Assembly: GCA_018882545.1 (NCBI GenBank)
Contig: VERS01000002.1
Span: 1 to 18,984, forward strand
From: Mycobacterium sp.
GTDB lineage: Bacteria > Actinomycetota > Actinomycetes > Mycobacteriales > Mycobacteriaceae
Reading direction: 5' to 3'
Length of the DNA: 18,984 bases
The notes beneath the pieces are model-generated. The model had not been told where the DNA came from, did no database searches, and saw nothing but the letters and a program-made list of their open reading frames with translations. This document shows positions 2,806 to 3,469 of this stretch, in pieces. Numbering within the stretch: position 1 is the first letter of the stretch; each line of letters begins with the position of its first letter. The translations under genes were made by a program, and so were the position numbers.

Positions 2806-3469
2806 ATGTTTCACGTGAAACGTGGTGCGCCCGATGCGCCGGAGTCCGCCGCCGAGGTTTTCGGTGCAGGGCTGGACACCGCCCGGGACTACGCGGAGTG
2901 GCTGGCCGGACCAGCGGTGGATCGGGGTCTGATCGGGCCGCATGAGGTAGACCGGATCTGGGACCGGCACCTTCTGAACTGCGCGGCCGTAGCCGAATTG
3001 ATCCAGCCCGGTGCGCGAGTGGTTGATGTCGGCAGCGGGGCCGGATTACCGGGGTCTGCCGGTGGCGATCGCGCGCCCCGACCTGACGGTGACGCTCGTC
3101 GAACCGATGCTTCGGCGCACCGAGTTCTTGGTCGAGACGATCAGCGCCCTGGGCCTTGCGGTGAGTGTGCTGCGTGGCCGCGCGGAGGACCCTGCGGTGC
3201 GCGAGGCGGCCGGCGGCGCGGACGCGGTGGTGTCGCGGGCAGTCGCGGACCTGGAGAAGCTGACCCGGTGGAGCCTGCCGTTGGCGCGCCCGGGCGGCCG
3301 GATGCTGGCGCTGAAGGGGGAACGGGCGGAGGCGGAGGTGGCCGAAAAGCGACCAGCGATGGCCCGGTTAGGCGCCCGGCACATCGAGGTGATGAGATGT
3401 GGAGCAAGTTATCTGAGCCCACCCGCCCGGGTGGTGGTGGCGGTGCGGGGCGAGAGGAGAGCACGATGA
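2806..3469 (+). pseudogene. rsmG: 16S rRNA m7G527 methyltransferase RsmG (GidB), frameshifted
   Basis: RsmG methylates G527 of 16S rRNA with S-adenosylmethionine; loss gives low-level streptomycin resistance in mycobacteria. The N-terminal half reads in one frame from MFHVKRGAPD through VVDVGSGAGLPG (SAM motif, residues 72-83). The rest, from LPVAIARPDLTVTLVEPMLR to the end at 3469, reads in the next frame. The shift falls at the GGGG run 3051-3054: removing one G restores Leu-Pro-Gly-Leu-Pro and a protein of about 220 residues, the normal length. So the gene carries a single +1 insertion, either a real mutation or a homopolymer sequencing error. The start could be ATG 2806 or, judged by the GGAGG spacing, GTG 2815. 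The restored stop overlaps the parA ATG (ATGA, 3466-3469). No stop occurs in the shifted frame before parA. Confidence 0.85.
2807..2822. promoter_or_regulatory. parS site 1, overlapping the rsmG start
   Basis: TGTTTCACGTGAAACG matches the ParB-binding consensus TGTTTCACGTGAAACA at 15 of 16 positions. ParB nucleates here and spreads to form the partition complex. The site covers the first codons of rsmG. A strong GGAGG at 2801-2805 touches the ATG at 2806 with no spacing, but sits nine bases from an in-frame GTG at 2815, which lies in the middle of parS. Confidence 0.9.

What the first reader, a model, noticed from the sequence alone, without database searches (positions are those of the whole stretch)
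3041..3064. rsmG (gidB) is broken by a one-base G insertion inside its SAM-binding motif
The protein match moves from one frame to the next at the GGGG run 3051-3054, between VGSGAGLPG and LPVAIARPDL. Removing one G restores a normal 220-residue RsmG with its stop overlapping the parA start. Loss of GidB in mycobacteria is a known route to low-level streptomycin resistance, so if real this strain may be a natural gidB mutant. A homopolymer sequencing error is the main alternative.
Basis: partly seen in the sequence, partly recalled or inferred. Interest (0 to 1): 0.7.

Follow-up and report, generated by a model that had tools for sequence, protein, structure and literature searches.

The report
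Broken rsmG gene, uncultured environmental mycobacterium
In this fragmentary mycobacterial genome the gene for a common ribosome-modifying enzyme loses its reading frame in the middle; two other mycobacterial genomes show different breaks in the same gene, so it may be a real, recent loss, but an assembly error cannot be ruled out without the original reads.

Summary
The frame break is there: RsmG/GidB is read in frame 1 from 2806 to about 3051 and in frame 2 from about 3053 to 3469, and the pieces match abutting parts of the family profile (Pfam GidB 5-62 and 63-177). It is the only copy found in an 84%-complete, 755-contig genome, probably a metagenome assembly of the Mycobacterium genus (inferred).

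Leaning to a real, recent loss: my partial scans found no other frame break in this assembly; longer homopolymer runs in neighbouring genes are in frame; of 296 same-genus genomes with an rsmG match three are broken, each differently: this one, its nearest sampled relative G003 (nonsense) and the 10-contig genome G164 (nonsense); two more end at contig ends. ParB and CwlM were broken in none of 60 matched genomes each (61 searched).

Against: no reads; the assembly is fragmentary; both pieces still look constrained, which fits a recent lesion or an error alike. Effects (no 16S m7G527, low-level streptomycin tolerance, altered fidelity) are inferred from other mycobacteria. I put a real loss at about 60%.

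The parts
2806..3051 (+). 5' piece of rsmG (gidB), frame 1, 82 codons, from the ATG through VGSGAGLP of the SAM-binding motif
   Evidence: Pfam GidB E 2.8e-14, profile 5-62; NCBIfam TIGR00138 30.8 bits, cut-off 99.5
3040..3064 (+). stretch in which the reading frame changes; the exact base cannot be assigned
   Evidence: sequence; abutting profile matches; relatives with an open frame, some with the same GGGG
3053..3469 (+). 3' piece of rsmG, frame 2, 138 codons and stop TGA
   Evidence: Pfam GidB E 2.1e-27, profile 63-177; single copy in own genome; 79% identical to G003
2806..4383 (+). frame 1 as it stands: RsmG N-part, out-of-frame stretch, then ParA, one open frame
   Evidence: ORF list; the parA frame is also open from this place in 11 of 57 relative loci, so the fusion frame is probably a by-product of GC-rich sequence
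3466..4383 (+). parA, own ATG overlapping the rsmG stop
   Evidence: Pfam AAA_31 E 9.2e-57, CbiA
2807..2822 (+). parS-like site inside the first codons of rsmG, one mismatch
   Evidence: pattern search, none expected by chance; the parS consensus is recalled; parS at the start of gidB is described in PMC2346475 (passages)
3492..3507 (+). parS-like site inside the 5' end of parA, exact

Best explanation
The window carries a real, recent loss-of-function allele of rsmG in a natural, probably uncultured, environmental Mycobacterium. A small length change just behind the SAM-binding motif ends RsmG after about 82 correct residues, so no working methyltransferase is made and 16S rRNA position G527 is expected to stay without its 7-methyl group. 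By analogy with M. tuberculosis and M. smegmatis this would give low-level streptomycin tolerance and altered handling of mischarged tRNA. Ribosomes that start at rsmG would run on in frame into parA, but parA keeps its own start and, in studied mycobacteria, its own promoter. Shown: the frame break, the single copy, different breaks in two other genomes. Inferred: that the break exists in living cells, loss of methylation, and the phenotypes.
For: Exact split of the profile match and single copy. The gene breaks elsewhere in the genus: of 296 genomes with a match (297 searched), G003 has an in-frame TAG in the C part and G164 a TAG in the N part; two (G032, G218) end at contig ends and cannot be judged; no break was seen in the other 291. 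Control genes in 61 chosen genomes, mostly of 200 contigs or more: ParB 60 matched, none broken, three cut by contig ends; CwlM 60 matched, none broken, two cut by contig ends; TGAs reported in two CwlM rows lie upstream of the start. No other frame break found in the parts of this assembly that I could check: 40.9 kb by comparison with G004 and 256 kb by a codon-statistics scan. Runs of five and six identical bases in neighbouring genes cause no break. Gid is a frequent target of loss in M. tuberculosis (PMC8767347 passages; PMC4061058 passages).
Against: No reads, no coverage, no sister strain. The genome is fragmentary (755 contigs, 84% complete), and two of the three broken copies sit in fragmentary assemblies. 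The codon-statistics scan did not flag the rsmG break itself, so its sensitivity is limited. Both pieces are still constrained: dN/dS against G003 0.22 and 0.19, against 0.07-0.23 and 0.10-0.22 in five pairs of intact relatives; only 3 of 80 highly conserved positions depart. That fits a very young lesion or an error equally. rpsL has lysine at the two classical resistance sites (sites recalled), so there is no independent sign of streptomycin selection.
Confidence: 0.6

Rival explanations
1. Sequencing or assembly error: the living population has an open rsmG and the contig carries a one-base mistake.
For: Fragmentary, 84%-complete assembly; no reads seen; the rest of the gene is still constrained; 291 of 296 genomes show no break.
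Against: No second frame break found in the checked parts; longer homopolymers in neighbouring genes are in frame; ParB and CwlM unbroken in the fragmentary genomes checked; broken rsmG also in G164, a 10-contig, 100%-complete genome.
Confidence: 0.35
2. A mixed population: some cells carry the broken allele and some an open one, and the assembler kept one branch.
For: Usual for metagenome assemblies (general knowledge); gid loss appears repeatedly within M. tuberculosis.
Against: Not testable without reads. It overlaps with the main reading and is counted inside it, not added.
Confidence: 0.1
3. Programmed ribosomal frameshifting joins the two pieces into a working enzyme.
For: Both pieces are conserved.
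Against: 56 of 57 distinct relative loci selected for the motif read through this place in one frame; the two other broken genomes have nonsense codons elsewhere; no known recoding signal was recognised by eye.
Confidence: 0.03

Closest known systems
RsmG/GidB, 16S rRNA (guanine527-N7)-methyltransferase (PF02527, TIGR00138)
   Same: Both pieces match the family, in order and abutting; jag-rsmG-parA-parB neighbourhood as described for M. bovis BCG and M. smegmatis (PMC2346475, passages)
   Different: No single open frame; frame change directly behind the SAM-binding motif
Loss-of-function gid/gidB alleles of Mycobacterium tuberculosis
   Same: Frameshifts and stops scattered over the gene, including single-base insertions (PMC8767347 and PMC4061058, passages)
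   Different: There seen in cultured, often drug-exposed clinical isolates with reads; here in an unnamed environmental assembly, with no reads and no phenotype
gidB-deleted Mycobacterium smegmatis (PMC13131534, abstract and one section read)
   Same: Absence of GidB; there it changes ribosomal discrimination of mischarged tRNA, and gidB mutants were recovered on low-dose streptomycin in a high-mistranslation background
   Different: Engineered or laboratory-selected mutants; nothing measured here

Membership tests
RsmG/GidB methyltransferase | Match to the family profile over its length | tested here: met
   Only as two pieces in two frames: profile 5-62 and 63-177 of 184
RsmG/GidB methyltransferase | One open reading frame; RsmG score above the curated cut-off | tested here: not met
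   30.8 and 81.1 bits against 99.5; frames differ. Hence: a broken copy of the gene, not a member as an enzyme
RsmG/GidB methyltransferase | Gene neighbourhood jag-rsmG-parA-parB with rsmG stop overlapping parA start | tested here: met
   neighbourhood in PMC2346475 passages
RsmG/GidB methyltransferase | Methylates 16S G527 | not testable with these tools
   needs RNA from the organism
Natural gidB loss-of-function allele | Lesion present in the organism, not only in the assembly | tested here: inconclusive
   no reads; indirect evidence only
Natural gidB loss-of-function allele | No second intact copy in the genome | tested here: met
   one match in own genome; the genome is only 84% complete, so a second copy in the missing part is not excluded

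The most novel reading that the evidence does not exclude
rsmG is being lost independently, again and again, in environmental mycobacteria outside drug treatment, including two sister species with different lesions, because loss of G527 methylation is tolerated or useful in their niche; the DNA stays in place because its 5' end carries a parS-like centromere site and it leads into parA.
Probability: 0.2. Interest if true: 0.5.

Novelty: new member of a known kind. Interest (0 to 1): 0.3.

Why it matters
gid loss is best known from M. tuberculosis under drug pressure. If breaks in this gene also occur naturally in environmental relatives, then finding one is not by itself a sign of drug exposure, and the fitness effect of losing m7G527 could be studied in natural populations. 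If it is an error, it shows how a single base in a fragmentary genome can mimic a resistance genotype.

Tried and rejected
Rejected: a second copy of rsmG making up for the loss (only one match in the own genome). A generally indel-ridden assembly: the G004 comparison (40,854 bases of 12 contigs, 17,411 of them in the window) gave two candidates, rsmG and one in L077; the L077 one is an antisense shadow of a better match. The codon-statistics scan of 46 readable contigs (256,220 bases) gave one candidate, L075, which I read as an overlap of a ThiD-like gene with a hydrolase-like gene (names by eye, not searched); the same scan of 1.2 Mb of G004 gave none. On the window the scan did not flag the rsmG break because it misassigned the short N piece, so it is a weak test. 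34 of 80 fetched contigs of the own genome were all N and could not be used.

Old decay: tested by dN/dS and relative rates. With five outgroups the N piece had more changes on this branch in three and none extra in two. With more outgroups, chi-square above 3.84 was reached for the N piece in 16 of 34, the C piece in 1 of 34, parA in 7 of 34 and jag in 0 of 31; outgroups overlap and are not independent. So the N piece may be somewhat faster on this branch, but there is no clear decay.

A RsmG-ParA fusion as a meaningful feature: the parA frame is open from this place in 11 of 57 relative loci too, so I give it no weight.

Could not be made: the search of the 5.8-billion protein database (switched off). 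Literature: one search found no paper with all four terms; some searches gave listings in which I saw no title or abstract about natural rsmG loss in environmental mycobacteria; this is a limited search.

Full report
What is there. The genus is inferred: same-genus genomes share contig lengths with records titled Mycolicibacterium and Mycobacteriaceae. That it is a metagenome assembly is inferred from its fragmentation. Gene order includes rnpA, yidC, jag, rsmG, parA, parB and, further on, an ORF matching the SigM family.

The break. Frame 1 gives RsmG from 2806 to about 3051, frame 2 from about 3053 to the stop at 3467-3469. The two halves hit Pfam GidB at positions 5-62 and 63-177, abutting; neither reaches the RsmG cut-off of NCBIfam. 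The frame-1 reading stays open into parA, to 4383. Which base makes the difference cannot be said: several neighbouring placements are equal, and 8 of 57 distinct relative loci carry the same four Gs in an open frame. The 57 are what remained of 67 loci given to the script after requiring the motif in one frame and dropping duplicates, so a relative with a broken motif would not have been counted. 56 of the 57 read on for 143-168 codons; the other is G003.

Is it an error of the assembly? I had no reads. Compared with 1.2 Mb of G004, 40.9 kb of this assembly in 12 contigs could be checked; rsmG was the only break that stood. A codon-statistics scan of 46 further contigs (256 kb) gave one candidate, which is an overlap of two genes, but the scan also missed rsmG. 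In the window's listed coding stretches there are 119 runs of four, 24 of five and 4 of six identical bases, with one break seen. So this assembly is not obviously prone to indels, but the sample is small.

How often is the gene broken? I searched the C piece in 297 genomes of the genus, repeated with a relative's piece because listings are capped, and searched the 75 genomes still unlisted; together every one of the 296 genomes with a match had a row (count, handles copied by hand). Broken: G000, G003 (TAG in the C part), G164 (short frame; TAG in the N part). G032 and G218 end at contig ends. G299 had no match. The test sees stops in the C part and frames much shorter than usual; subtler damage would be missed. 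As a control I searched ParB and CwlM in 61 of these genomes, chosen mostly for having 200 contigs or more: 60 matched in each, none broken, a few cut by contig ends; the TGAs reported in two CwlM rows lie upstream of the start.

Are the two neighbours related losses? A FastTree of yidC, jag and parA columns places this genome with G003 (support 0.94) on long branches; G164 is elsewhere. Lesions differ, so they arose separately. That the nearest relative is one of only two other broken genomes is suggestive, but both are fragmentary assemblies, so relatedness and assembly quality cannot be told apart with so few cases.

Age. dN/dS of the pieces against G003 is 0.22 and 0.19, as in pairs of intact relatives. 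At positions conserved in at least 95% of the relatives compared, this copy departs at 1 of 28 (N) and 2 of 52 (C), G003 at none of 80, G164 at 3 of 80. The N piece shows faster change on this branch with 16 of 34 outgroups, but parA does so with 7 of 34. So: recent, if real.

What it would do. By established function RsmG puts the methyl group on G527 of 16S rRNA (family name). Loss of gid is linked to low-level streptomycin resistance in M. tuberculosis; 1737 frameshift or stop variants were found in gid among 32,689 isolates (PMC8767347, passages), and frameshifts also occur in susceptible isolates (PMC4061058, passages), so the effect is small and variable. In M. smegmatis, deletion changes discrimination of mischarged tRNA (PMC13131534, abstract and one section). 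parA has its own promoter besides co-transcription with gidB in M. bovis BCG and M. smegmatis (PMC2346475, passages), so parA need not suffer. rpsL here has lysine at the two classical sites (the sites are recalled).

Verdict. I put a real, recent loss at about 0.6 and an assembly or sequencing error at about 0.35, before anyone looks at the reads. The re-check of this report against its calls led to softer wording but to no change of odds.

Noticed in passing
L031 3067-3069 (G003, JAPOHV010000076.1): Nearest sampled relative has an in-frame TAG in rsmG, 22 codons behind the SAM motif, well inside a 13.2 kb contig titled with coverage 22; no break was noticed by eye in the listed ORFs of its neighbouring genes.
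   Followed up: partly
   Followed up: partly
window 2807-2822 and 3492-3507: parS-like sites lie inside the first codons of rsmG and of parA; a parS-like core is found near the rsmG start in 55 of 57 relative loci, which may explain why RsmG of these bacteria often begins MFHVK.
   Followed up: partly
window 9052-9370: Between trxB and sigM there are only about 320 bases, against about 580 between the same matches in G004; an anti-sigma gene that I expect here from M. tuberculosis (recalled) seems short or missing.
   Followed up: partly
G000 short contigs: 34 of 80 fetched contigs of the own genome read as N throughout, all under 2 kb as far as I looked.
   Followed up: no
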